Shown: in pieces, positions 7,895 to 20,265 of the stretch
Layout of the letters: each line of letters begins with the position of its first letter
How positions within the stretch are numbered: the stretch's first letter is position 1
NCBI RefSeq assembly: GCF_900115495.1
Contig: NZ_FOWR01000026.1
Span: 1-64,000, forward strand
DNA length: 64,000 nucleotides
Reading direction: 5' to 3'
DNA from: Enterovibrio norvegicus DSM 15893
GTDB lineage: Bacteria > Pseudomonadota > Gammaproteobacteria > Enterobacterales > Vibrionaceae
The notes under the pieces: generated by a model
Databases searched by the model: none
Told to the model about the DNA's origin: nothing
Seen by the model: the letters and a program-made list of their open reading frames with translations, nothing else
Translations under genes and position numbers: made by a program

Positions 7895-8023
7895 ACGTAC
7901 CCAATTAACCAGATACTTTACTGTAAAAATAACGCTAACGACGTGCTTCAGTGCAAAAACTAAGCAGTCGGTTCATGAATGGCAGAAATATAATTACAAA
8001 CTGCGCGGGTTTGGGTATTGATA

Positions 8024-8111
8024 GGGATACTCCTTACCAATCTACAGATGTGCTCCCTGCAGAGCCTTGCCTACTCAGACTTCCTTCATGATCCCTCATG
8101 AATCGTATCCC
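8024..8111. repeat. 88-base element bounded by GGGATAC/GTATCCC arms
   Basis: GGGATAC at 8024-8030 and its reverse complement GTATCCC at 8105-8111 bound a stretch with further small dyads (CTCCCTGCAGAG, TCATGA repeated either side of TCCC). It lies between the divergent DUF2946 and metN genes and could be a structured leader of either or a small palindromic repeat. I do not recognise it as a known riboswitch. Confidence 0.3.
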
Positions 8112-8147
8112 CAACACAATGCCTAAAACACAACCAAATAACCGTAT

Positions 8148-8179
8148 AGACGTCTAGCCGTCTAGCCGTAAAAATATCT
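8148..8179 (+). promoter_or_regulatory. MetJ operator of metNIQ: four tandem 8-base met boxes
   Basis: Four consecutive 8-base units start at 8148, 8156, 8164 and 8172. The first is the perfect consensus AGACGTCT; the second is AGCCGTCT and the others match less well. MetJ, bound to S-adenosylmethionine, binds such tandem boxes cooperatively and represses methionine genes. The array ends one base before the -35 element of the promoter for metN. Confidence 0.9.
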
Positions 8180-8180
8180 A

Positions 8181-8209
8181 TTGACTTATCGATCGACTAT
8201 AAATAGCAT
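8181..8209 (+). promoter_or_regulatory. Probable sigma-70 promoter of metNIQ
   Basis: TTGACT at 8181-8186 and TAGCAT at 8204-8209 are separated by 17 bases; the MetJ boxes abut the -35 element. The TATAAA just before the -10 is too close to the -35 to be the partner. A leader of roughly 75 bases would precede metN. Confidence 0.55.
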
Positions 8210-8291
8210 CAAATTCTAGAACAAAGAACAAAAGCAACAATTATCACTACATTTTAACGATTATTTAACACGATTTTGTCCAGGATGGCTT

Positions 8292-9326
8292 ATGATCGAA
8301 ATTAGTCAGGTTAATAAAGAATTCAAACAAGGCGTGAAAACGATTCATGCTCTGCGTGATATTGACCTTCACATTCCAAAGGGCAGGATTTTCGGGGTTA
8401 TCGGCGCATCTGGCGCAGGTAAAAGCACCCTGATTCGCATTGTTAACTTGTTGGAGCGCCCAACAAGTGGGAACGTGAACGTCGATGGCGTAGAACTCAC
8501 CACCCTTTCAGCGTCAGAATTGACACGTGAACGTCAGAAGATCGGCATGATCTTCCAGCACTTTAATCTTCTTTCTTCTCGCACTGTGTTTGATAACGTC
8601 GCGTTACCTCTTGAACTCGCTGGTAAAGACCACGCGCATATCCAAGGCAAAGTCACTGAATTGCTGGAATTGGTTGGGCTTGATGACAAGCACACCAGCT
8701 ACCCTGCCAATTTAAGTGGCGGACAAAAGCAACGGGTAGCCATTGCTCGCGCACTCGCCAGTGACCCAAAAGTCCTGCTTTGCGACGAGGCCACCAGCGC
8801 CCTGGATCCTGCGACCACACATTCGATTTTGAATCTGCTGCAAACCATCAATCAGAAGTTGGGATTAACCATCTTGTTGATCACCCATGAAATGGATGTG
8901 GTAAAGCGCATCTGTCATGAAGTGGCCATTATTGGCGACGGAAAGTTGGTGGAGAAGGGCACGGTTGGCGATATTTTCGCCCACCCCAAAACCGAACTGG
9001 CGCGTGACTTCATTCGTGCCACCTTGAACCTGTCGATTCCTCAAGATTACGCGGAGCGTCTTCAAACAGAAAACACGGGCACACTTCCCCCTTTGGTTCG
9101 CCTAGAGTTTACTGGCACCAGTGTGGATGCCCCTCTCGTGAGCCAAGTGTCGCGCAAGTTCAACGTTGATGTGAGCATTTTAAGTGCAGACATGGATTAC
9201 GCCGGTGGCGTGAAGTTCGGCCTCATGCTGGCAGAATTTTTCGGCGACGCCTCAGACGTCACACATGCTCTCGCGTATTTAAAAGAAAACAACGTCAACA
9301 TCGAGGTGCTTGGTTATGTCGCTTAG
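8292..9326 (+). CDS. metN: Methionine ABC transporter ATP-binding protein MetN
   Basis: ATPase subunit of the MetNIQ importer for L- and D-methionine, on the cytoplasmic side of the inner membrane. The 344 residues show Walker [10 protein letters not shown] (38-46), the Q-loop in MIFQHFNLL (about 86-94), ABC signature LSGGQKQR (141-148), and Walker [13 protein letters not shown] (161-172). The C-terminal NIL domain (about 265-344) binds methionine in E. coli and causes trans-inhibition when the cell is replete. It is first in metNIQ behind MetJ boxes. Its last 11 bases overlap the start of metI. Confidence 0.97.
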
Positions 9327-10008
9327 TATTGCTGCCATTTCTGGCTGGTTCGCTGAAAACGAACGCCTTGTCAGTCTGTTGATTGATGCCCTTGGCCAAA
9401 CCCTCACCATGGTGTTTGTTTCTGGCTTTGTTGGCTTTGTGTTTGGTATCCCATTAGGTGTGTTGCTGCATCTTTCCAAACCTCGCGGGTTGCTTGAGAA
9501 CAAGCTACTCAACCGCAGCCTTGGTGCGGTAGTGAACATTGGCCGTTCGATTCCTTTCATCATTTTGCTGGTTGCCATCATTCCGTTCACTCGCCTTGTG
9601 GTGGGCAGTTCGATAGGCACAGCCGCGGCGATTGTGCCTTTGATTGTGGGTGCGATTCCTTTCATTGCTCGCCTTGTTGAAGGTGCGCTGATTGAAGTGC
9701 CATCAGGCTTGGTGGAAGCGGCGCAAGCCATGGGGGCTACCCCGCTGCAAATCATCCTTAAGGTTCTGCTACCAGAAGCCCTACCGGGCATCGTGAATGG
9801 CGCGACCATTACTTTGGTGACGCTGGTGAGCTACTCCGCCATGGCGGGCGCTGTAGGCGGTGGTGGCTTGGGCGATGTCGGTATTCGCTACGGGTACCAG
9901 CGCTTTGATGGCACCGTCATGATGATCACCATTGTCATGCTCGTCATTTTGGTTCAATTGATTCAGTCGGCGGGCGATTACTTCGTTAAACGCGTCGACC
10001 ACAGATAA
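9316..10008 (+). CDS. metI: Methionine ABC transporter permease MetI
   Basis: Inner-membrane channel subunit of MetNIQ, 230 residues with about five membrane helices. The EAA loop that contacts MetN is visible as [20 protein letters not shown] (around residues 136-155). I place the start at ATG 9316 (MSLSIAAIS), giving the family length; a TTG two codons upstream is in frame but less likely. The start lies inside the end of metN, which implies coupled translation. Confidence 0.95.
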
Positions 10009-10116
10009 AACACAGTGACAAAAGAAAAAACGATGACGCAGAAAGGCGAGATATCCCCGCTTTCTGCGCCATAGAAAATAAAAAAATGGAAATTTAAGCT
10101 CATAGGAGATGCGCAA

Positions 10117-10929
10117 ATGACGTTCAATCTTAAAAAAATCGCGACAGTACTCGGTTTGGCTTCCGCTCTGGCATTGACGGGCTGTGGTGAAGAAAAAGCG
10201 GTCGACCTGACCAAAGTAAAAATTGGCGTAATGGCTGGTGCAGAAGAGCAAGTTGCCGAAATCGCAGTAAAAGTGGCGAAAGAGAAATACGGCCTAGACG
10301 TAGAGCTAATCACCTTTACAGATTACGTATCACCCAATGCTGCCTTGGAAGAAGGCTCCATTGATGCCAACGCTTTCCAGCACAAGCCGTACTTGGATCA
10401 GCAAATTTCTGACCGTGGCTACAAGTTCGAAATCGCAGGCAATACCTTGGTTTACCCGATTGCAGGTTACTCAAACACAGTGACCTCTGTTGATCAAATC
10501 GAAGATGGCGCACAAATCGCTGTGCCTAACGATCCAACAAACCTAGGCCGTTCTTTGCTTCTTCTTGAACAGCAAGGTCTTCTTACCCTAAAAGAGGACG
10601 TTGGCCTTCAAGCGACCGTATTGGATATCGTCGGCAACCCGAAGAATTTGGACATTGTTGAGCTAGAAGCGGCGCAACTTCCGCGTTCATTGGACGATGT
10701 AACGCTGGCGATCATTAACAACACTTACGCTGCAACCATTGGTCTTTCACAAGAAAAAGACGGCGTGTTTGTTGAAGACAAGAAATCACCTTATGTGAAC
10801 CTGATTGTTGCGCGTACCGATAACGTGAATGCTGAAAACGTGAAACAGTTTGTCTCTGCTTATCAGTCAGACGCTGTTTACACTGCGGCGGTAGATACCT
10901 TCCAAGGTGGTGTGGTGAAAGGCTGGTAA
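10117..10929 (+). CDS. metQ: Methionine-binding lipoprotein MetQ
   Basis: Periplasmic substrate-binding lipoprotein of the methionine importer, 270 residues. The signal sequence ends in the lipobox LALTGC (Cys23). The mature protein starts with a short polar linker and continues with KIGVMAGAEEQVAE, the N-terminal strand of the NlpA/MetQ family; FTDYVSPNAALEEGSIDANAFQH is the conserved ligand-binding region. AGGAGA lies eight bases before the ATG. It follows metI after a 108-base gap and ends the operon at a strong terminator. Confidence 0.96.
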   Translation: MTFNLKKIATVLGLASALALTGCGEEKAVDLTKVKIGVMAGAEEQVAEIAVKVAKEKYGLDVELITFTDYVSPNAALEEGSIDANAFQHKPYLDQQISDRGYKFEIAGNTLVYPIAGYSNTVTSVDQIEDGAQIAVPNDPTNLGRSLLLLEQQGLLTLKEDVGLQATVLDIVGNPKNLDIVELEAAQLPRSLDDVTLAIINNTYAATIGLSQEKDGVFVEDKKSPYVNLIVARTDNVNAENVKQFVSAYQSDAVYTAAVDTFQGGVVKGW

Positions 10930-10967
10930 TCCACCCATAACCTGGTTCCCCTTTTTTCCCCCCTCCA

Positions 10968-11000
10968 AAAGCCTGTGTAAAACACAGGCTTTTTCTTTTT
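10968..11000 (+). terminator. Terminator of metNIQ
   Basis: A ten-pair stem, AAAGCCTGTG with CACAGGCTTT, and a five-base loop, followed by a T-rich tract (TTTTTCTTTTT). It lies 38 bases after the metQ stop. Confidence 0.93.
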
Positions 11001-11051
11001 GTGCATGTCATCATGCGCGATATTTATTCAAAGGATGATTTTCAGGCGCAT

Positions 11052-11816
11052 ATGGATATTCTCGCCACGTTCGGTCTCTTTGTCGGTTCGCTGATCGCAA
11101 ACACACTGGCGTCACTCGCAGGTGGCGGCGCAGGCTTGCTGCAACTTCCCCTTCTTATTTTTCTCGGCCTCGCCTTTTCAGTCGCCCTCGCGACCCATAA
11201 AGTCGCCTCTGTCGCACTTGGCCTAGGGGCGGCTATTCGACATTGTCGAAGTGGCAACCTTAGTCTCGCATTAACCGTTTACGTCACGCTTGCAGGCGCT
11301 GCGGGTGTCATTGCAGGGGCGAACCTTATTCTGTTCATCCCTGGCCCAACAGCAGAAGGGTTGCTCGGTGTTTTCATCATCTTATTGGGGTTGTATTCCC
11401 GCGCCCGAAAAACGTTAGGGCATGAAGCCGACCCTAAACATCGCGATACCTTAGGCATGGTGATCGGTTGTGTTGGTTTAAGTGTCATCGGCGTACTGAA
11501 TGGCTCGCTCACCGCAGGCACGGGGTTGTTCGTCACCCTCTTTTTGGTTCGATGGTTTGGACTAGATTACAAACAAGCGGTAGCGCTCACACTGGTCAGT
11601 GTTGGTTTGTTTTGGAATGGTTTAGGAGCAATCACCTTAGCGATTGCAGGTGCAGAAATTTATTGGCCATGGATTCCCGCCCTTCTTGCAGGCTCCTTGC
11701 TAGGGGGATATCTCGGTGCCTACATGGCGGACAAATACAGCAACAAACTGATCAAAATCGCCTTCGAACTGCTGACCTTTGCCGTCGGCATTAAATTGCT
11801 CGTAGGCGTACTTTAA
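11052..11816 (+). CDS. TauE/SafE-family membrane exporter
   Basis: An inner-membrane protein of the TauE/SafE (DUF81) family, proposed exporters of sulfite, sulfoacetate and similar anions. It has about eight hydrophobic segments, and the family's N-terminal signature is visible as SLAGGGAGLLQLPLLIFLG (around residues 18-36), with the related second-half motif GSLTAGTGLFVTLFLV. I place the start at ATG 11052 (MDILATFGLF), where the first helix begins; the frame is open back to GTG 11001 and an ATG at 11013 is also possible. It lies just after the metQ terminator. The SelW-like gene follows after nine bases, so the two probably form one unit. Substrate is unknown. Confidence 0.85.
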   Translation: MDILATFGLFVGSLIANTLASLAGGGAGLLQLPLLIFLGLAFSVALATHKVASVALGLGAAIRHCRSGNLSLALTVYVTLAGAAGVIAGANLILFIPGPTAEGLLGVFIILLGLYSRARKTLGHEADPKHRDTLGMVIGCVGLSVIGVLNGSLTAGTGLFVTLFLVRWFGLDYKQAVALTLVSVGLFWNGLGAITLAIAGAEIYWPWIPALLAGSLLGGYLGAYMADKYSNKLIKIAFELLTFAVGIKLLVGVL

Positions 11817-11825
11817 GGAATAACA

Positions 11826-12098
11826 ATGAAAGCAAAAATTGCCATTTACTATTGTCGTCAATGCAACTGGATGTTGCGTTCAACGTGGATGAGCCAAGAA
11901 CTTCTAACGACGTTCAGTGAAGAAATTGAAAGCCTGACTCTGCACCCCGACACTGGTGGGCGTTTTGAGGTGCACTGTAACGATGAAATGATCTGGGAAA
12001 GAAAGCGTGACGGCGGCTTCCCCGATGCGAAACAGCTAAAGCAGCGGGTGCGCGACGTGATCGATCCGACGCGCGATCTCGGTCATGTTGATCGCTAA
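11826..12098 (+). CDS. SelT/SelW/SelH-family (Rdx) CxxC protein
   Basis: A 90-residue thioredoxin-fold-like protein of the Rdx family, bacterial relatives of selenoprotein W. The redox motif is CRQC at residues 10-13 in the context IYYCRQCNW; here both positions are cysteine, with no TGA selenocysteine codon. TGGRFEV and the C-terminal KRDGGFPDAKQLKQRVRD are also typical. It starts nine bases after the TauE/SafE gene (AAGGAATAACAATG) and is probably co-transcribed. A role in thiol redox chemistry is inferred from the family; the target is unknown. Confidence 0.87.
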   Translation: MKAKIAIYYCRQCNWMLRSTWMSQELLTTFSEEIESLTLHPDTGGRFEVHCNDEMIWERKRDGGFPDAKQLKQRVRDVIDPTRDLGHVDR

Positions 12099-12101
12099 CG
12101 G

Positions 12102-12230
12102 CTAGGGTCTGTTGACCTTTGGTGATGATTTTTGCAACAGTTTGTGGCGACCTTGTGCAAGGCAGAGGCTTCGATGTGCAGTTTGTCTACATGAGAAGCG
12201 GATAACACAGAAGGAAGTCGCCACGAACAG
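12102..12230. repeat. Repeat-like intergenic element with long inverted arms
   Basis: The segment begins CTAGGGTCTGTTGACCTTTGG and carries arms TTTGTGGCGAC (12141-12151) and GTCGCCACGAA (12218-12228), which pair at 10 of 11 positions. A diverged copy of its first 20 bases occurs at 30305-30324. It lies between two convergent genes. It reads like a remnant of a small mobile or palindromic repeat; no coding sequence is visible. Confidence 0.4.
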
Positions 12231-12241
12231 ACTGCGCGCAA

Positions 12242-12637
12242 TCAGTCTGCCAACATGCCAAACATAACAATGCTGTTGTAACTCACGATCCCTTTGATCT
12301 CGCCGTTTTCGACCACGGGCGCGCGGCTAATGCCAAACCGCTCAAACAAACGCGCGCAGTATTTTACGTTCATGTCTGGTGACACACCCAGTGCTGGTTT
12401 GGTCATGATTTCATACACATTCACGCGCTCTGGCGATTTATTCTGCGACAGCACTTTCTTGGCGATGTCGTTCATTAGCACCAAACCATACTCGTCATTC
12501 TCATCGCGCTTTTTCACGATCAGGCATTTAATTTCTTTGCTTCTGGCGATGCGAATGGCCTCGGCAACCGTTGTTAAACCATCGATAAGTGCGAAATCGT
12601 TTTTCATCACTTCTCTTACGCATTTGCTCTCTTTCAT
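12242..12637 (-). CDS. CBS-domain protein, last gene of the DUF1538/PII operon
   Basis: A 131-residue protein made almost wholly of a CBS pair (about residues 8-60 and 72-125), with VREVM, SKEIKCLIV, GLVLMNDIAKKVL and YEIMTKP, and a second half ending EIKGIVSYNSIVMFGM. CBS pairs bind adenine nucleotides or SAM and regulate partner proteins. There is no catalytic domain attached. Its start overlaps the stop of the PII-like gene by four bases, so it is the last of four tightly packed genes. A nucleotide-sensing role for the neighbouring membrane proteins is inference. Confidence 0.88.
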   Translation of the reverse strand: MKESKCVREVMKNDFALIDGLTTVAEAIRIARSKEIKCLIVKKRDENDEYGLVLMNDIAKKVLSQNKSPERVNVYEIMTKPALGVSPDMNVKYCARLFERFGISRAPVVENGEIKGIVSYNSIVMFGMLAD

Positions 12638-12984
12638 AGCTCGTCCTCAATCACAGTACTGAGTTCTTGTACTTGGTGTGCCACGCCAACAGCATCTTCC
12701 ACGTCGAGCTGTACCGCGATCCCCTTCCCTGAACTGGCATCAAACTCCCCGACGTCATTGATGGTCTCGAGAATGCTGCGAGCAAGGTGTTCTTCAACCA
12801 AAAACAGGACAACATCGCGTTGAACATCCAGCGTCAGGCCAAAGAAGGTTTTCTTTTTTGTCAGCCCTTCACCGCGCGCATTATTGATGACCGTTGCCCC
12901 GGTTGCCCCCGCTTTCCGTGCCGCATCAAGCACAGCATCTGTTTTTGAATCTTCAATAAAAGCGACGATCAATTTAAACCGCAT
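12634..12984 (-). CDS. PII-like signalling protein
   Basis: A 116-residue protein with the PII ferredoxin-like fold signature: KLIVAFIEDSKTDAVLDAARKAG then GATVINNARGEG, equivalent to the beta1-alpha1-beta2 region and the start of the T-loop. The loop is short (TKKKTFFG) and lacks the tyrosine that is uridylylated in GlnB/GlnK, and the C-terminal RTGE-type segment is replaced, so it is a divergent PII-like sensor and not a standard nitrogen regulator. It shares one base with the stop of the DUF1538 gene before it. A role in ligand-dependent control of those membrane proteins is a reasonable inference from context. Confidence 0.82.
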   Translation of the reverse strand: MRFKLIVAFIEDSKTDAVLDAARKAGATGATVINNARGEGLTKKKTFFGLTLDVQRDVVLFLVEEHLARSILETINDVGEFDASSGKGIAVQLDVEDAVGVAHQVQELSTVIEDEL

Positions 12985-13790
12985 TAGGATTCCCTCGTTT
13001 TGTTACTGACACGTTGACGCCTAGCGACCCATTCCGTGATTTGGGCGTAGCCCATAACGGTGATCATCGGAAAGAGACTGGCAAACGCAATTAACCCAAA
13101 ACCATCAATCATGGGATTTCTCCCAGGTACCGTAGACGCAAGACCAAGACCAAGTGCTGTCACCAAAGGCACCGTTACCGTCGATGTTGTCACCCCGCCG
13201 GAGTCATAGGCCAGTGGCACAATAAACTTCGGCGCATAAAAGGTTTGGATCACCACCAGTACATAACCGGCAATGATGTAGTAATGAATCGGGTCGCCTT
13301 CCACAATGCGATAGCAACCCAATGAAATCCCAATGGATACGCCTAAAGCGACAGAAAAACGCAATCCATTCACGCTGATTGCACCACCTGACACTTGCGC
13401 CGCTTTAATGGCGACCGCAATCAACGACGGTTCCGCCACCGTGGTACTAAAGCCTATAGCAGCCGCGAAGATGTAAACCCAATAGTAATGCTGCCATTGC
13501 ACTCGTGTAGGCATGATGCCGCCTTCCCCAAAAAGGAATTCAGGCGCAGTGAGCTGAATCGCCATGGATTCCCCAAGCGGGAACAACGCCATTTCCAACC
13601 CCATCAAAAAGAGCGTTAAACCAAACAGCACGTACGCAAAACCAAACACGATGCGTTTTAGGTTCGCGATGGGCTGACGTAACACGGCGAATTGGAAACC
13701 AAACAAAATACACACGATGGGAAACACATCGCGCACGGTCGAAAGAAAGGTATCAAAGAAGGTAGGGATGAGGGATTGAAGCAAGGTCAT
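12984..13790 (-). CDS. DUF1538 membrane protein, second paralogue
   Basis: A 268-residue polytopic protein with about seven hydrophobic segments, of unknown function. The C-terminal half holds [20 protein letters not shown] and then [20 protein letters not shown], which are nearly identical in the upstream paralogue; [18 protein letters not shown] is the other conserved block. The glycine-rich and Thr/Ser-rich motifs in membrane segments suggest a transport role, but that is inference. It overlaps the upstream DUF1538 gene by four bases and the PII-like gene by one base. The C-terminus ends in a basic tail ([12 protein letters not shown]). Confidence 0.85.
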
Positions 13791-14521
13791 ATCGCCACCA
13801 TGCCGTAAACCATGACGAAAATCATGGGAGAAAGTGAGGCAAACGCGATCAGGCCAAAGCCATCCACCATGGGGTTTCGCCCTTTGATCACTGTGGCAAG
13901 GCCTACGCCAAGCGCCGTCACTAAAGGCACGGTGATGGTCGATGTGGTCACGCCACCAGAATCATAAGCGATACCTATGATGTAACGCGGCGCGATCATG
14001 GTCATCGCGACAACCAAGAGATAACCACCAATGATGATGCGATGAATCGGCCAGCCTTTCAGGATGCGCAATACACCCAGCATGATGGCAAACCCCACAG
14101 AGAGTGCGACCGTGATCCTAAGCCCATTGGCGTAGCTGTCTTGCGCTTCCATCGCCATAGGGATCATTCCTCCTTCCGCAGCCACTTCAGCCGCTTCCGC
14201 AGCCACAGCCGTGAGCGCAGGTTCGGCGATAGTCGTGCCAAAACCGAGCAGGAACGCAAACACCATCAGCCAAAAGACACTGCCTTTTCGAGCGAGTGCG
14301 TGCGCCATGGATTCGCCAATCGGAAACAGGCCCATTTCGAGGCCAAAGACAAAGAAGGTAAGCCCCATCACCACCAACACGAGTCCAACGAGGATAGACG
14401 CAAGATCAGGCATGGGTTGTTGAAGCACAAACACTTGGAAGAAGCCGATCACCAAAATAATCGGGAGCAAGTCTTTAAAACTTCCCAACATAGCGGATAG
14501 CAATGCAGTGATTCCCTTCAC
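13787..14521 (-). CDS. DUF1538 membrane protein, first paralogue
   Basis: First gene of the four-gene operon; 244 residues from GTG at 14519-14521. I chose this start because GGAG lies just upstream and because it gives an N-terminus that aligns with the downstream paralogue; the frame is open further to an ATG at 14545 and a TTG at 14593. Conserved blocks are [20 protein letters not shown], then [40 protein letters not shown] and [20 protein letters not shown]. The two paralogues probably form a heteromeric membrane complex, since they always appear here as a coupled pair. Substrate and activity are unknown. Confidence 0.83.
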
Positions 14522-14716
14522 ACTCGCTCCATTCCAGCATCGCATAATTGCCCACAAATGTAACCAGATGTAACCAGACTTTCTAGACCACAATGTGAAT
14601 AGGGTGATTGAGTTAGCAAGGTTTTGCTTAAAATAGGAACGAAAGGCACGTCTAGAATGATCATTTAACCATTTGAATGCATACTCAATACAACAGCCCA
14701 GCGCAAAAGGTTAACA

Positions 14717-15613
14717 ATGCACATTCTAATTACTGGTGGGACAGGTCTCATTGGCCGCACTTTGATCAGCAAACTTGGTGACCATGAAATCACCGTGCTT
14801 ACGCGCTCGCCTCAAAAAGCGAAAAATGTTCTGCCTTCAACCGTCACCACCATTGCCGATCTCGATGAGCTCACGGACTTCAACAACATCGATGCAGTAA
14901 TTAATTTGGCAGGTGAACCGATTGTCGATAAGCGTTGGTCAGATCGGCAAAAAGGTATCATTTGCTCAAGCCGATGGGGTATCACGGAAAAAATCGTTAG
15001 CCGCATTTTAACGGCTGACAATCCGCCCAAAACCTTGATAAGCGGTTCCGCGGTTGGTTATTACAGCGACCAAAAAGACGCGATTGTCGATGAATCCCTG
15101 GTGGTGGATGCCACGGATTTCGCCCATGCTGTGTGTGCAAACTGGGAAAGAATCGCCTTGCGCGCAAGACCCGCTAAAACGCGAGTTTGCTTGCTGAGAA
15201 CAGGCATTGTTCTGAGCAAAGAAGGCGGTGCATTGAAGAAAATGTTACTGCCATATCAACTGGGATTAGGTGGCGCTATCGGCGATGGCAATCAGTATTT
15301 CCCTTGGATCCACATCGAAGACATGGCCAATGCCATCGTGCACCTTCTCGAAAAAAGTGAACATGAAGGGGCATTTAACCTGACAGCGCCGAACCCAGTA
15401 ACGAATCGCGAGTTTAGCCAAAGTCTGGCGGCGTCTCTTGACCGTCCACACATTCTTTTCACACCTGCTTTTGCCATTAAATTGATGCTGGGTGAAGCGG
15501 GTCAACTCCTCCTTGAAGGTCAACGGGCGATTCCAAAAGCATTGGAGGAGGACGGCTTCACGTTCACCTACAAAGAAATCCGCCCAGCACTCGACAGTTT
15601 GCTTCGCCAATAA
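14717..15613 (+). CDS. yfcH: TIGR01777-family NAD(P)-binding epimerase-like protein (YfcH)
   Basis: A 298-residue extended short-chain dehydrogenase fold protein. The N-terminal dinucleotide-binding motif is GGTGLIG (residues 7-13), followed by NLAGEPI (about 74-80), which is diagnostic of the SulA-like/YfcH family, and the downstream DUF1731 tail (ALEEDGFTF-Y at the C-terminus). The physiological substrate is unknown. The gene stands alone, transcribed away from the DUF1538 operon, and ends at a bidirectional terminator shared with ybbP. Confidence 0.92.
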   Translation: MHILITGGTGLIGRTLISKLGDHEITVLTRSPQKAKNVLPSTVTTIADLDELTDFNNIDAVINLAGEPIVDKRWSDRQKGIICSSRWGITEKIVSRILTADNPPKTLISGSAVGYYSDQKDAIVDESLVVDATDFAHAVCANWERIALRARPAKTRVCLLRTGIVLSKEGGALKKMLLPYQLGLGGAIGDGNQYFPWIHIEDMANAIVHLLEKSEHEGAFNLTAPNPVTNREFSQSLAASLDRPHILFTPAFAIKLMLGEAGQLLLEGQRAIPKALEEDGFTFTYKEIRPALDSLLRQ

Positions 15614-15655
15614 GCGCCTTCTCTCAATGAGGTGTTAGATCAGCCAATAAAAAAC

Positions 15656-15685
15656 AAAAAGGCACGCTAATACGTGCCTTTTTTA
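15656..15685. terminator. Bidirectional terminator between yfcH and ybbP
   Basis: AAAAAGGCACG and CGTGCCTTTTT form an eleven-pair stem with a six-base loop. Flanking A and T runs let it act on both strands; it lies between two convergent genes. Confidence 0.9.
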
Positions 15686-15706
15686 GTGCCGAATAGGGCC
15701 CAGGAT

Positions 15707-18148
15707 TTAACGTTTCAAGGGTTCAAGCAATCCACGCAGCATCCAAGCGACCGTCATAAAGACAAGGCCCACGGCGATCATAGGCAGACTCAACCACACC
15801 TCAGGGTGCAAACGCACAGGCAGCTCAACACCCCATTTGAGCAATGCGGCCATCGCAAGTTCTGCCCCGCCCACAGCCATGCAACCTGACACCAAGGCCA
15901 TGATGCCGTATTCCGCCCAAAGTGTGGTGTTGATGCGTTTCTTACTCGCGCCTAAGGTGCGATAGAGCATGATTTCACGCTGCCTTTCCGAGAGCGTTAT
16001 CCGCAGGAGCGTGAGCAGCAGCAATAACCCGCTGACCACAGCAAGGCCCGCCAGCACTGACAGCGATAAGCTCACTTGGCGCAACATCACTTGGATGCGC
16101 CCACTCATGGTACGCAAATCCAACAAGGTAATGGTTGGGTAATCACGTCCAAGCTGGTTAACGATGTCGCTCTGCTCGCTTTCAAGGCGGAAGCTCACCA
16201 GCCAGTTTGCAGGTAAACTCTCGACCAGTTTTGGGTCGAAAATGAAGTAAAAATTTGGCTTCATGTTGCGCCATTCCACATCGCGCACTGAGTTAATGGT
16301 GGCAATGAATTCTTGGCTGTTCACACTGAACGTCAGTTCATCGCCCATCCGCAACCCGAGTCGCTCCGCAATGCCACTTTCCACCGACACGCCGCCTTTC
16401 GTTGGCCATGTGCCTTCAAGCAATGCGTTATGTGTAGGCAGTTCATCACGCCATGTGAAATTCAACTCGCGGCGAAGGGCTTCATCACGCTCCTCGCGAT
16501 TCGGTTCCATGTCCGCATAACGATTGCCATTGTTTGCCACCAGGCGCCCTCGAATGATCGGATACGCTTCAGATCGTTCAAGGTTGTTGGCATCCAAACG
16601 CCCAACGTAATCGTCCAGTTCAGATTTCGCGATGTTCAACGCAAACACATTGGGTGCATCCGGCGGTAACGTTTGCTGCCAATCTTCCAGCAAATCGGTA
16701 CGCAGCAACCAGATGATCGACAGCAACATGAACGAAGTGGCCAGCGCACCAAGCTGCGCGCCACTCGACGCGGGGTTACGGGCAATGCGGCTCAATGCCA
16801 ATTTGAACGCAGGTTGGGTGACACGTTTTTGTGCAAAACGCAGCACCATCACACCAATGCCAGCAAGCAAACTGAGCATCACCACCAAAGCAGCCAACAC
16901 TAGCCACAACAGGCGATTGTCATAAGACCACGCCACCAACGCCAAAATAGGCACGGAAGCGAGCAACCAACTCCAAGGGCTCTTTCTTGCTTTCACTGCC
17001 CCTTGCGATTGCAACACACTCAATGCGGGTGCGTCGATCAAGCGAATGAGCGGAATGCCCAGCGCAGGCAAGGCCACCAGCAAGGCCACTAAAGGCCCCA
17101 AGAACCAAGGCAACAAACCATAACTTGGTAGCGGCGATGGCAACACATCGGCCAACGGTAAGCGAAGCAGGTATTCCAACGCAGCACCAAACGACAACCC
17201 CAACACGGTCGCCATCAGCATTAACATGACGAGTTGTCGGCCCAGCCAACGTCTTACCCAGCTTCGTTGTGCCCCTAGGCTTTTCACCATAGCAAGGGTC
17301 TGCGTGCGGCTATCAACATAGTGCTGACACGTCAGCAGCAAGGTCGCGGCTGCCATAATGATCACAAGAACAACCGTGAGCGACAAATACCCGCGACTGC
17401 GATCCAACATGTCACCGGTGCGATCCCCGGTATTTTCATCAATCCAACGTTGCCCTTCAGCCACCGGATACACGGCTTTTACCGCATCAAGTTCGCTGTT
17501 GTCGCCACTGAAAAAATAACGATAGTTAACACGGCTTCCCGGACGTACTACCCCTGCCGCAGCTACATCGCTTTGGTGCATCATGGCGGCAGGCATTTGG
17601 CTAAATGGGTTAAACGAAAGTTCAGGCTCAGAGACGATCAAGCCTGATACTTGCAGGCTGACATCCCCCACGTCCACGCTGTCACCGACTTGCACATCCA
17701 GCAAGGTAAACAAACGCTCCTCTAGCCAAAGTTCGCCAGGTTTCACGCTGTCGTGCATCGTGGTATCGGCTTGCAACTCAAGGTTTCCACGCAGCGGGTA
17801 GTTGCTTTCCACAGCCTTCACGCTAATTAGTTGCATGTTGTCTTGGCTAAATGCCATGGTGCCAAATCGGGTTTGATCTGACACTTCAACGTCAAGGGTT
17901 TCGAAGTTCGCGAGAGTTTGTTCGGTGAGAGGCTGATTACTTCTCAGCACGAGGTCAGCAGCCAGCATCGATCGGCCTTGCTGAGTTAATACAGATTCAA
18001 TGCGCCCCGCCAATGCTGACAAGGCAAACACACACGCGATGATCAGCGCCAACGCCGCAACAACGGGCCAGAGCTGGCCATGAAATAATTCACGCCACGC
18101 CCAGCGCCACACTAAGGTGCCTTTCTTTTTATTCCGAGATTCGCTCAT
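15707..18148 (-). CDS. ybbP: ABC transporter permease YbbP, FtsX-like
   Basis: An 813-residue inner-membrane permease with duplicated FtsX-like halves: an N-terminal helix (about 20-45), a large periplasmic region, a cluster of helices near 255-450, a second periplasmic region and three C-terminal helices (about 685-810). It partners with YbbA, whose stop it overlaps by four bases. The set ybbA-ybbP beside tesA is conserved with E. coli, where an assembly acting on hydrophobic compounds has been proposed; the natural substrate is not known. FtsX-type permeases usually transmit force to the periplasm and do not move a solute across the membrane. Confidence 0.93.
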   Translation of the reverse strand: MSESRNKKKGTLVWRWAWRELFHGQLWPVVAALALIIACVFALSALAGRIESVLTQQGRSMLAADLVLRSNQPLTEQTLANFETLDVEVSDQTRFGTMAFSQDNMQLISVKAVESNYPLRGNLELQADTTMHDSVKPGELWLEERLFTLLDVQVGDSVDVGDVSLQVSGLIVSEPELSFNPFSQMPAAMMHQSDVAAAGVVRPGSRVNYRYFFSGDNSELDAVKAVYPVAEGQRWIDENTGDRTGDMLDRSRGYLSLTVVLVIIMAAATLLLTCQHYVDSRTQTLAMVKSLGAQRSWVRRWLGRQLVMLMLMATVLGLSFGAALEYLLRLPLADVLPSPLPSYGLLPWFLGPLVALLVALPALGIPLIRLIDAPALSVLQSQGAVKARKSPWSWLLASVPILALVAWSYDNRLLWLVLAALVVMLSLLAGIGVMVLRFAQKRVTQPAFKLALSRIARNPASSGAQLGALATSFMLLSIIWLLRTDLLEDWQQTLPPDAPNVFALNIAKSELDDYVGRLDANNLERSEAYPIIRGRLVANNGNRYADMEPNREERDEALRRELNFTWRDELPTHNALLEGTWPTKGGVSVESGIAERLGLRMGDELTFSVNSQEFIATINSVRDVEWRNMKPNFYFIFDPKLVESLPANWLVSFRLESEQSDIVNQLGRDYPTITLLDLRTMSGRIQVMLRQVSLSLSVLAGLAVVSGLLLLLTLLRITLSERQREIMLYRTLGASKKRINTTLWAEYGIMALVSGCMAVGGAELAMAALLKWGVELPVRLHPEVWLSLPMIAVGLVFMTVAWMLRGLLEPLKR

Positions 18149-18822
18149 GCAACCCCCGCCAGCTCACCCGCGTTGATGTGTAATGTGCGCGTGCAGCGAT
18201 CCGCCAATGCAGGATCATGCGTAACAAGAATCAGCGTCGTCCCGTGATCGCGGTTAAGCGAGAAAAGTAAATCGATCACCGTCGCCGCGGTATGTTGGTC
18301 AAGGTTGCCAGTCGGCTCATCCGCAAACAGCACGCGAGGGCGCGTCATGAATGCGCGCGCAATGGCGACACGCTGTTGCTCGCCGCCAGAGAGTTGGGAA
18401 GGAAGGTGCGTTTCACGACCTTTCAATCCCACGGAGGCGAGCAATTCGAGTGCACGGTCTTCGTCTTCGTCATCCCCGCGAATGGTGCAAGGGAGCATGA
18501 CGTTTTCGAGCGCATTCAATGAAGGAACTAGGAGGAAGCTTTGGAAAACAAACCCAATGGATTCGGCGCGAAGTGCGGCTCGCCCATTATCATCCAATTG
18601 GCTAAGCGGCTTACCGAGAAGCTCGATTTCTCCGGTGCTTGGGGTATCTAACCCAGCGAGCAATGTCATTAAGGTGGATTTACCCGCGCCAGAAACCCCA
18701 ACCAAAGCAATACTTTCGCCCTGCTCGACCTGAAGGGAAACATCCTGCAGAATGGTCAGAGTCTGTGCATTCGTTGTCACTGTTTTCGTGACGTTATTCG
18801 CCCTGATCACTGGAGTTGTCAT
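18145..18822 (-). CDS. ybbA: ABC transporter ATP-binding protein YbbA
   Basis: ATPase of the YbbAP transporter, 225 residues from ATG 18822. Walker A is GVSGAGKST, the signature [15 protein letters not shown] and Walker B VLFADEPTGNLD, as in LolD/MacB-type ATPases. I prefer this ATG to one three codons upstream (18831). The chosen start overlaps the start codon of tesA on the other strand within a CATG at 18820-18823, so each gene must take its promoter from inside the other's coding region. The coupling to ybbP is by a four-base overlap. Confidence 0.94.
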   Translation of the reverse strand: MTTPVIRANNVTKTVTTNAQTLTILQDVSLQVEQGESIALVGVSGAGKSTLMTLLAGLDTPSTGEIELLGKPLSQLDDNGRAALRAESIGFVFQSFLLVPSLNALENVMLPCTIRGDDEDEDRALELLASVGLKGRETHLPSQLSGGEQQRVAIARAFMTRPRVLFADEPTGNLDQHTAATVIDLLFSLNRDHGTTLILVTHDPALADRCTRTLHINAGELAGVA

Positions 18823-19417
18823 GATTCGCATCCTTTCTTTTTGTCTTTTGATTATCAGTCAAAGCGCCGTCGGACAGACATTGCTTGTACTTGGAGATAG
18901 CTTGAGTGCTGGCTATCAAATGGCGATTGAAAAAAGTTGGCCTAGCCTTCTAGCGCCTCAATTGGTCGGCCAAGGCACGGTAACCAAAGTGGTCAATGCC
19001 AGTATCTCAGGCGACACCAGTGGCAACAGCCTTGACCGTCTCCCAGCCTTACTCGAACAGCATGCTCCGGCCTGGGTAGTGATTGAACTTGGTGCTAACG
19101 ATGGATTACGCGGGTTTCCGCCAAAGAAAATACGCGAGAACCTGACAAAACTGATCACTTTGAGCCAAGAAAGTGGCGCTAAAGTCATGCTCATGCAAAT
19201 TCAAATCCCACCTAATTATGGTCAACGATACAGCAATGCTTTTGCAGATATCTATCCAGAGTTAAGTAAAGAAATGCAAATCCCACTTATTCCCTTCTTT
19301 ATGGAAAAAGTCGTGATGACGGAAGGATGGATGATGCAAGATGGCCTTCATCCTAAAGCCATTGCTCAACCGTGGATTGCTGATTTCATGCAAGAACACA
19401 TTACGCCAAACCTGTAA
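18821..19417 (+). CDS. tesA: Acyl-CoA thioesterase I / lysophospholipase L1 (TesA), periplasmic
   Basis: SGNH-fold esterase that cleaves acyl thioesters, lysophospholipids and aryl esters in the periplasm. The 198 residues begin with a signal peptide (about 1-18, LLIISQSAVG) and continue to LLVLGDSLSAGYQ, with nucleophile Ser27. Block III is GANDGLRG and block V is DGLHP, supplying the catalytic Asp and His. I place the start at ATG 18821, which gives a normal signal peptide. It is divergent from ybbA with overlapping start codons and is followed after 20 bases by the SDR gene. Confidence 0.95.
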   Translation: MIRILSFCLLIISQSAVGQTLLVLGDSLSAGYQMAIEKSWPSLLAPQLVGQGTVTKVVNASISGDTSGNSLDRLPALLEQHAPAWVVIELGANDGLRGFPPKKIRENLTKLITLSQESGAKVMLMQIQIPPNYGQRYSNAFADIYPELSKEMQIPLIPFFMEKVVMTEGWMMQDGLHPKAIAQPWIADFMQEHITPNL

Positions 19418-19437
19418 AAACAAGGAAATACATAAGA

Positions 19438-20265
19438 ATGAATAACACGGTTCTCATCACAGGATGTTCAACGGGTATTGGCTATGTATGCGCACATGCA
19501 TTGGTAAAAGAAGGCTTTGATGTCATCGCGTCTTGCCGAAAAGACGAAGACGTTACACGTCTCCAACAAGAAGGGTTGCATTGCATCAAACTCGATCTTG
19601 CAGACACGGCCAGCATTCTTTCTGCGGTTGAAACCGTCAAGGCACACACTGGCGGAACACTTTATGGGTTATTCAATAACGGGGCGTATGGTCAGCCCGG
19701 CGCATTGGAGGATCTTCCAACGGATGCCCTGCGCGAGCAATTTGAGGCCAACTTCTTCGGCTGGCACACACTCACGCAAGCGGTGATCCCAATGATGCAT
19801 GCCAATGGAAAAGGGCGGATCATTCAAAACAGCTCCGTGCTTGGCATCATCGCGTTGAAATTTCGCGGCGCATACAACGCCAGCAAATTTGCGATTGAAG
19901 GCTGGACAGACACCATTCGCCTCGAACTCGCTGACACGCCCATTCAAATAAGCTTGATTGAGCCAGGCCCTATCGAAAGTCGCTTTCGCGCCAATGCTCT
20001 CGCAGCATTTCATCGCGCGATAAACATTGATACAAGTCGCTTCACCAACGCCTATCTATCACAAAAAGACCGCCTTGAAAGCGAGCATTCAACCAACAAA
20101 TACACCTTGCCTGCTGAGGCAATCGTGCCTCCACTGCTTCACGCACTGACGGCTGCGACACCTAAAATTCGTTATCGCGTCACCAAACCCACGCAATATA
20201 TGGCGCTCTGTAAAAGGCTACTTCCATCTAGAATGCTCGACAAGATCTTGGCGAAAGGTGGTTGA
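19438..20265 (+). CDS. ybbO: Short-chain dehydrogenase, YbbO-like
   Basis: A 275-residue classical SDR. The cofactor motif GCSTGIG is at 9-15, NNGAYG at about 80, the catalytic Ser in QNSSVLG and the Tyr/Lys in YNASK (around 145-149), followed by SLIEPGPIESRF. E. coli YbbO, in the same position beside tesA, is an NADP-dependent aldehyde reductase, so I use that name by synteny and resemblance. AAGGAA precedes the ATG, 20 bases after tesA; the two are probably co-transcribed. Substrate is not shown by the sequence. Confidence 0.88.
   Translation: MNNTVLITGCSTGIGYVCAHALVKEGFDVIASCRKDEDVTRLQQEGLHCIKLDLADTASILSAVETVKAHTGGTLYGLFNNGAYGQPGALEDLPTDALREQFEANFFGWHTLTQAVIPMMHANGKGRIIQNSSVLGIIALKFRGAYNASKFAIEGWTDTIRLELADTPIQISLIEPGPIESRFRANALAAFHRAINIDTSRFTNAYLSQKDRLESEHSTNKYTLPAEAIVPPLLHALTAATPKIRYRVTKPTQYMALCKRLLPSRMLDKILAKGG

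What the first reader, a model, noticed from the sequence alone, without database searches (positions are those of the whole stretch)
12242..14521. Four-gene operon: two DUF1538 membrane proteins, a divergent PII-like protein and a CBS-domain protein
All four genes overlap by one or four bases, which implies a fixed stoichiometric unit. The two membrane proteins are paralogues sharing nearly identical motifs ([10 protein letters not shown], [16 protein letters not shown], GLEMxLFPxGESMA), so a heteromeric channel or transporter is plausible. The PII-like protein lacks the uridylylation tyrosine, and the CBS protein has no partner domain, so together they may form a nucleotide-sensing gate, by analogy with PII control of AmtB. 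I know of no assigned function; it is the best candidate here for an undescribed system.
Basis: partly seen in the sequence, partly recalled or inferred. Interest (0 to 1): 0.75.

Follow-up and report, generated by a model that had tools for sequence, protein, structure and literature searches.

The report
Cation antiporter operon with PII-like partner
Four overlapping genes encode a two-part membrane protein related to a known sodium/potassium-for-proton exchanger plus two small soluble proteins; one of these, a changed member of the PII nitrogen-signalling family, travels with this kind of transporter in distantly related bacteria and probably controls it.

Summary
In detail: four minus-strand genes overlapping by 4, 1 and 4 bases encode two DUF1538 membrane proteins, a divergent PII-like protein and a two-repeat CBS protein. 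The membrane pair is not of unknown function: the DUF1538 pair UmpAB of Halomonas zhaodongensis was reported in 2017 as a heterodimeric Na+(Li+,K+)/H+ antiporter (PMC5484666), in a paper without the words P-II, PII or CBS. What looks new is the link to PII. Of 170 non-redundant DUF1538 units, 164 have a PII-like gene directly downstream; so do all 9 plasmid records found with the window's UmpA, six of them from Clostridia. PII-first searches mostly lead back to DUF1538, though at least 16 of 120 strong places do not. The PII partner comes as one, two or three domains per chain; CBS is optional (140 of 170). The PII-like protein has the PII fold but lacks Tyr51, Lys58, Lys90 and Arg101 in 61 of 61 relatives, so ATP/2-oxoglutarate sensing is doubtful. 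Best reading: a PII-gated cation/proton antiporter with CBS as likely nucleotide sensor. Contact, ligand and direction of control are inferred.

The parts
13787..14521 (-). UmpA-like DUF1538 membrane subunit (GTG start proposed; frame open to TTG 14593, ATG at 14491)
   Evidence: ORF; Pfam DUF1538 235 bits; best NCBIfam model UmpA 371.2 bits, below its cut-off of 490
12984..13790 (-). UmpB-like DUF1538 membrane subunit
   Evidence: ORF; Pfam DUF1538 225.5 bits; best NCBIfam model UmpB 339.1 bits, below its cut-off of 500; all-helical model, mean pLDDT 89.4, pTM 0.81
12634..12984 (-). divergent PII-like protein, 116 aa
   Evidence: Pfam P-II 42.8 bits over cut-off 25; PII fold, Z 12.8; canonical ligand residues lost
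12814..12879 (-). T-loop region of the PII-like protein (residues 36-57), by a modest margin the most conserved of five regions; no Tyr51 equivalent
12242..12637 (-). stand-alone protein of two CBS repeats, 131 aa
   Evidence: Pfam CBS 67.9 bits, two stretches; nearest solved structure by sequence is the CBS part of CBS-CP12, 5nmu, E 3.9e-24
13431..13433 (-). codon of Glu120 of the UmpB-like subunit, invariant acidic residue at the break between two helices of the model (99-118 and 121-133)
   Evidence: 345 of 345 DUF1538 domain copies (whose printed number is one too low); secondary structure
13203..13205 (-). codon of Asp196 of the UmpB-like subunit, in [10 protein letters not shown], invariant acidic residue in the helix (191-200) just before the second break (201-205)
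   Evidence: 345 of 345 DUF1538 domain copies (printed number one too low); secondary structure

Best explanation
A cation/proton antiporter with a dedicated PII-type gate. UmpA-like and UmpB-like subunits form a heterodimer that exchanges Na+ (or K+) for H+ (reported for the Halomonas relative, inferred here); Glu120 and Asp196, at and beside two broken helices, are the likely ion/proton sites (inferred). The PII-like protein, probably a trimer, docks by its conserved T-loop on the cytoplasmic side and throttles or blocks the antiporter (inferred, by analogy with GlnK on AmtB). It does not read ATP/2-oxoglutarate in the usual way. Where present, the CBS protein, translated in overlap with it, is the likelier sensor of an adenine nucleotide and passes the signal through the PII-like protein (inferred). 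The antiporter core works without these partners in E. coli, as the 2017 co-expression of two genes showed for the relative, so they are more likely regulators than parts needed for transport.
For: Membrane pair: Pfam DUF1538, UmpA and UmpB as best-scoring models in the right order, published heterodimeric antiport by UmpAB. Link to PII: 164 of 170 non-redundant DUF1538 units have it directly downstream; in 398 genomes, 100 of the 105 with a strong PII-like match also have DUF1538, Fisher p 3e-62; 19 of 20 weaker PII-like places fetched sit next to a long DUF1538 gene, the 20th at a contig end; in 72,556 plasmid records the window's UmpA finds 9 records and its PII finds 8, all among the 9, and the ninth has an annotated P-II gene next door. 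The number of PII domains per chain varies from one to three while the partner stays DUF1538. PII and CBS stay together in two genomes where both lie away from the antiporter genes (L255, L256). Fold of PII; T-loop the most conserved of five regions, modestly. CBS nearest to CBS-CP12.
Against: No test of contact, ligand or transport was possible. The window's proteins fall below NCBIfam's cut-offs for UmpA and UmpB. The characterised Halomonas clone is described as ending with umpB, so whether that antiporter has PII next door was not seen. Of 120 strong PII-like places, 19 that looked unlinked were fetched: 16 have no DUF1538 beside them, two more (L261, L264) end within about 100 bases on the side where it would lie, one is beside a DUF1538 fragment; three further unlinked places were not fetched. 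So the PII family is not used only with this antiporter. Five genomes have a strong PII-like match and no DUF1538 match. In the window's CBS protein the second repeat lacks the usual aspartate (motif recalled), so nucleotide binding by it is uncertain. The UmpB model has no significant match among solved folds.
Confidence: 0.6

Rival explanations
1. The PII-like protein is a permanent structural subunit or assembly factor of the DUF1538 complex and senses nothing; regulation, if any, comes from CBS or from pH alone.
For: Ligand residues lost; near-universal presence next to DUF1538; double and triple PII chains suit a fixed subunit.
Against: UmpA plus UmpB alone gave antiport in E. coli (PMC5484666); the glycines around the old ligand pocket are mostly kept (G87 54 of 61, G89 60 of 61).
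Confidence: 0.25
2. DUF1538 mainly moves something other than Na+/K+ (for example ammonium, bicarbonate or an organic ion), and PII is there for nitrogen or carbon control; the salt phenotype in E. coli is a side effect.
For: PII proteins are best known for control of ammonium transport, and SbtB for bicarbonate transport (established knowledge, recalled). Some unlinked copies of this PII family sit beside genes that read like ntrBC.
Against: Na+, Li+ and K+/H+ antiport by UmpAB was measured in everted membrane vesicles (PMC5484666, abstract, discussion and passages); canonical nitrogen/carbon signal residues are lost in this PII.
Confidence: 0.1
3. The genes are merely co-transcribed and the soluble proteins act elsewhere.
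For: Copies of the PII-like gene exist beside unrelated genes.
Against: Linkage survives in Pseudomonadota, in a second phylum sample and in Clostridia, with gene fusions and changes of architecture on both sides.
Confidence: 0.05

Closest known systems
UmpAB Na+(Li+,K+)/H+ antiporter, Halomonas zhaodongensis (PMC5484666)
   Same: Two overlapping DUF1538 genes, seven predicted spans per subunit, same family; the paper's own clade includes Vibrio ezurae and V. xiamenensis
   Different: The published clone is described with four ORFs, none PII or CBS, and the paper does not use those words; the window's pair is under NCBIfam's equivalog cut-offs
GlnK-AmtB (PII-gated ammonium channel)
   Same: PII-fold protein encoded next to a membrane partner; works-like model
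   Different: Different transporter family; a five-residue gap after the T-loop and no Tyr51; ATP/2-oxoglutarate residues lost
SbtB-SbtA (PII-like gate of a bicarbonate transporter; recalled)
   Same: PII-like protein dedicated to one transporter
   Different: SbtB is hardly detected by the profile (E about 0.95); different transporter; no CBS partner known to me
CBS-CP12 of cyanobacteria (5nmu)
   Same: Two-repeat CBS module aligned over 117 residues without gaps
   Different: No CP12 tail; linked to PII and an antiporter instead
CBS-regulated ion transporters such as MgtE and CLC (recalled)
   Same: CBS repeats linked to ion flux
   Different: CBS is a separate protein here; the MgtE membrane-domain match of the UmpB model is weak (Z 4.3-5.2) and only a lead

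Membership tests
DUF1538 (Pfam PF07556) | score over gathering cut-off | tested here: met
   235 and 225.5 bits, cut-off 22.6
UmpA / UmpB antiporter subunits (NCBIfam NF041627, NF041628) | score over curated equivalog cut-off | tested here: not met
   371.2 of 490 and 339.1 of 500; for the UmpA model, 0 of 369 class genomes and 0 of 293 order genomes have a match over 490 either
UmpAB antiporter | adjacent, overlapping pair of unlike DUF1538 genes, each closest to its own subunit model | tested here: met
   4-base overlap; UmpA-like 371 vs 190, UmpB-like 339 vs 218 bits
UmpAB antiporter | Na+(Li+,K+)/H+ exchange, heterodimer | not testable with these tools
   needs a vesicle assay
PII superfamily (Pfam P-II) | profile score and fold | tested here: met
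   42.8 bits over 25; Z 12.8, 97 residues aligned, rmsd 5.3 to 2v5h_J
Canonical GlnB/GlnK | uridylylation Tyr51 in the T-loop | tested here: not met
   0 of 61 PII-like rows have Tyr at that column; 4 rows, partners of fused DUF1538, have a Tyr elsewhere in the loop; present in the same genome's GlnB and GlnK
Canonical GlnB/GlnK | ATP/2-oxoglutarate residues Gln39, Lys58, Lys90, Arg101, Arg103 (role as ligand contacts recalled) | tested here: not met
   Kept in 1, 0, 0, 0 and 2 of 61 PII-like rows respectively; all kept in the same genome's GlnB and GlnK
PII superfamily | homotrimer | not testable with these tools
   Indirect only: relatives with three PII domains in one chain
CBS-domain proteins | paired CBS repeats over cut-off | tested here: met
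   67.9 bits over 24, two stretches
PII-gated transporter (GlnK-AmtB type) | PII gene constantly linked to the transporter gene | tested here: met
   164 of 170 units; 9 of 9 plasmid records
PII-gated transporter (GlnK-AmtB type) | direct, effector-controlled binding | not testable with these tools
   no complex prediction or assay available

The most novel reading that the evidence does not exclude
DUF1538 antiporters as a whole are a PII-gated transporter class spread over several phyla: a PII protein stripped of ATP/2-oxoglutarate sensing has become the dedicated gate of a monovalent cation/proton antiporter, in some lineages as a single chain of two or three PII domains, so that one lopsided PII pseudo-trimer meets one lopsided pair of membrane halves, and in others with a CBS protein added as new sensor.
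Probability: 0.5. Interest if true: 0.8.

Novelty: new variant of a known kind. Interest (0 to 1): 0.62.

Why it matters
PII proteins are a leading model of how a soluble signal protein opens or shuts a membrane transporter, but the transporter targets I know of concern nitrogen and carbon. A PII-gated salt/pH antiporter would carry that logic into ion and pH balance. It gives the UmpAB antiporter, for which I saw no control described beyond its pH dependence, two ready candidate regulators, and the double- and triple-PII chains offer a natural way to break the three-fold symmetry of PII and ask which face binds the transporter. If the reading is right, UmpAB expressed alone is the ungated core.

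Tried and rejected
Fold of the membrane part: Foldseek found no PDB match at E <= 0.001 for the UmpB model (best E 1.0); VIA-align's best was Z 6.7 over 64 residues of a receptor. The MgtE membrane domain (Z 4.3-5.2, 109-117 residues, rmsd 3.9-4.3) is noted as a lead only; such Z values are common for helical bundles. No claim of a new fold is made.

Solved relatives of DUF1538 by sequence: none at E <= 10.

Riboswitch or leader upstream: over 8000-20000 Rfam gave only two matches, both below gathering score. Promoter and terminator scans found no more than shuffles give.

Finding the original Halomonas UmpAB: no genome in the class sample (369) or the order sample (293) passed the NCBIfam cut-off, so its downstream genes were not seen.

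Coevolution of PII with UmpAB was considered and not run: too few non-redundant sequences for the number of columns.

Literature: 5 papers in the held library contain DUF1538 and 9 contain umpAB. Of PMC5484666 I read the abstract, sections 5, 10 and 13, and passages: the words P-II, PII, GlnB, GlnK, nitrogen regulatory and CBS do not occur. The other four DUF1538 papers (PMC13255231, PMC5996927, PMC6055358, PMC7221264) and two cable-bacteria papers (PMC10030654, PMC12093952) were seen as passages and searched for PII, P-II and nitrogen regulatory: the only hit is 'PII' inside a sequence motif in PMC7221264. The remaining umpAB papers (PMC6440370 and two on unrelated subjects) were seen in the listing only. 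Searches on PII with antiporter, gene neighbourhood, CBS, PF07556 and tandem PII (listings only) showed no title or abstract start linking PII to DUF1538. Most subscription papers and preprints are not held, so the link may be in print elsewhere.

Rows dropped: alignments were thinned to cut redundancy or odd starts (A2 has the window and 66 of 79 PII proteins; A3 the window and 60 of 79 UmpB proteins; A4 20 chosen rows). Three duplicate units of 173 were dropped. The 168 loci were not a random sample: they came from best matches, about one per genus, and picks; the listings were themselves cut.

Full report
What is there. On the minus strand, 14521 to 12242, four genes overlap by 4, 1 and 4 bases. 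They encode two DUF1538 membrane proteins, a 116-residue PII-like protein and a 131-residue protein of two CBS repeats. The first gene's start is not certain: GTG 14521 fits the length of relatives, TTG 14593 and ATG 14491 are in the same frame. By the nearest named relatives (L106, Enterovibrio norvegicus, 88% identity for UmpB) the window probably comes from Enterovibrio or close to it. The genome has only this DUF1538 pair and three PII proteins: this one and two with the canonical motifs, which I call GlnB and GlnK (names mine).

The membrane pair has a known relative. NCBIfam's best models are UmpA for the first and UmpB for the second protein, both below the curated cut-offs (371.2 of 490, 339.1 of 500). 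UmpAB of Halomonas zhaodongensis was reported in 2017 as a heterodimer in the membrane with pH-dependent Na+, Li+ and K+/H+ exchange measured in everted vesicles, and co-expression of the two genes was enough in E. coli (PMC5484666; abstract, sections 5, 10 and 13 and passages seen). That paper places Vibrio homologues in the UmpAB clade. Its clone is described as four ORFs ending with umpB, and the words P-II, PII, nitrogen regulatory and CBS do not occur in it. So the transport function is assigned by relation, not new; the strict NCBIfam label is not met.

The link to PII is the finding. In 60 loci from phylum and relatives plus the window, 58 of 61 hold a PII-like gene and 46 of 61 a CBS protein of this kind. 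In 80 loci of named genomes chosen by UmpB similarity, 79 have UmpB-PII-CBS in order; the exception, L169, is a short contig. Pooled and de-duplicated, 164 of 170 DUF1538 units have PII directly downstream on the same strand and 140 of 170 have CBS within reach. The six without: L072 has PII upstream in the same gene run; L242 has it next door on the other strand; L083 and L087 have a PII-CBS pair, and L085 a PII gene, elsewhere in the same genome; L169 has 666 bases left on its contig, with no PII found. The pool is a choice of good matches, not a random sample, and the PII profile was grown from such loci.

The reverse test, starting from PII. In 398 genomes of the phylum, 120 places score at least 100 bits with the PII-like profile, in 105 genomes; 100 of these genomes also have DUF1538, 5 do not, and 26 more have DUF1538 but no PII match that strong. 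Of those 26, 12 were looked at through a weaker PII match: in 11 it lies next to a DUF1538 gene, in one (L279) at a contig end. I fetched 19 strong places that looked unlinked: 16 are away from DUF1538; L261 and L264 end 102 and 4 bases before the PII gene, on the side where DUF1538 would lie; L268 is beside a DUF1538 fragment. Three more on contigs without a listed DUF1538 match were not fetched. The unlinked copies sit, by eye, beside genes such as dus and ntrBC, argB or mutS. Of the 20 weaker places fetched (about 52-62 bits), 19 are next to a long DUF1538 gene and one at a contig end; a further one (72 bits, L269) lies next to DUF1538 frames as well. In 72,556 plasmid records the window's UmpA finds 9 and its PII finds 8, all among those 9. 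I opened seven of the nine: five have DUF1538 and P-II annotated side by side, among them the ninth record, which the PII query missed; two Clostridia records carry no annotation there and show both genes by my own scan. For the other two, closeness rests on the two sets of match coordinates. Six of the nine records are Clostridia, three Alphaproteobacteria. In a second phylum sample, that of the genome behind L177 (record titled Desulfuromonadales), 8 of 198 genomes have DUF1538; of 7 fetched, 6 show a PII gene and the seventh, L296, a 64-residue piece at its contig end.

Architectures. The pair may be separate (as here) or one chain of about 500 or about 565-715 residues. The PII partner may be one domain; two (222-234 residues, L292, L302, L303, L306); or three (369-420 residues, L237, L238, L239, L244, L297, L298). 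In the triple chains the middle domain is clear and the outer two weaker: with the profile the third domain has i-E 7e-9 in L237, 9e-8 in L239, 4e-6 in L238, and is not significant in L244; first-domain matches range from 2e-8 to 0.4 by protein and profile. Of five of these chains scanned, Pfam's own P-II model passes its cut-off only in L237 and L238, so the three-domain reading rests on the family profiles and on length.

What the PII protein has lost. The model has the PII fold (mean pLDDT 73, T-loop below 50; Z 12.8 to a PII structure). Mapped on the same genome's GlnB, of 61 PII-like rows Tyr51 is kept in 0, Lys58 in 0 (a five-residue gap), Lys90 in 0 (I/V/L/M/F instead), Arg101 in 0 (Gly in 60), Gln39 in 1 and Arg103 in 2; the glycines G37, G87 and G89 are kept in 58, 54 and 60 (PDB profile alignments agree). 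Four rows, all partners of fused DUF1538, have a tyrosine elsewhere in the loop. That these are the ATP and 2-oxoglutarate contacts is established knowledge, recalled. The T-loop region is the most conserved of five regions, by a modest margin (0.588 against 0.504-0.533 for the core regions).

The CBS protein aligns without gaps to the CBS part of CBS-CP12 (E 3.9e-24). The ribose-type aspartate of the first repeat is kept (40 of 46 at that column); the second repeat lacks it in the window (the motif is recalled). AMP binding is therefore plausible but open.

The membrane fold. The UmpB model is confident (pLDDT 89.4, pTM 0.81). I read its helices as seven spans, two of them broken, around TTVAEP and [10 protein letters not shown]. 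Across 345 DUF1538 domain copies in the loci, Glu120 at the first break and Asp196 just before the second are the only charged residues of the window's UmpB kept in all (numbers there are one too low). Broken helices with acidic residues are usual in cation/proton antiporters (recalled). No solved structure matches significantly, which shows neither a new nor an old fold.

How it most likely works. Shown: operon, families, linkage, residue losses. Reported for a relative: heterodimer and exchange, active without partners in E. coli. Inferred: PII docks on UmpAB and restrains it; CBS, where present, reads an adenine nucleotide and works through PII; Glu120/Asp196 carry the ions. Lineages without CBS must use another signal, or the altered PII pocket. 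The triple-PII chains suggest that a PII trimer is the working form and that its three domains can play unlike parts against an unlike pair of membrane halves.

Novelty. A PII-gated transporter is a known kind; a DUF1538 antiporter is known; their general union, the double and triple PII chains and the CBS addition were not found in print in the held library (for seven papers), which lacks most subscription papers and preprints. I therefore call it a new variant of a known kind.

Noticed in passing
L237:2831-4057, L238:2899-4161, L239:2693-3946, L244:888-2027, L297:3824-4933, L298:3888-5033: Single-chain proteins that read as three PII domains, each encoded directly after a long fused DUF1538 gene; two-domain chains in L292, L302, L303 and L306.
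   Followed up: partly
L259-L264: Copies of the PII-like gene away from DUF1538 (L261 and L264 at contig ends), several followed by genes that read like dus, ntrB and ntrC; a possible separate use in nitrogen control (names from reading the sequence, not scanned).
   Followed up: no
L255:161-1001, L256:141-955: PII-CBS pair standing apart from the DUF1538 pair of the same genomes (L083, L087).
   Followed up: yes
L072, L228, L230: Two DUF1538 systems in tandem, one of separate subunits and one fused, with PII genes for both.
   Followed up: partly
L135 (genome G798, Aliamphritea spongicola): The UmpA frame is interrupted by stops, so the system looks decayed there.
   Followed up: no
L304 (Methylocystis rosea plasmid): DUF1538-DUF1538-PII set lying between IS66 and other transposase genes, hinting at mobility.
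   Followed up: no
window 8292-10929 and 15707-18831: Neighbouring operons read like a methionine-type ABC importer and an ABC exporter pair; ordinary and not linked to the finding (read from the ORFs, not scanned).
   Followed up: no
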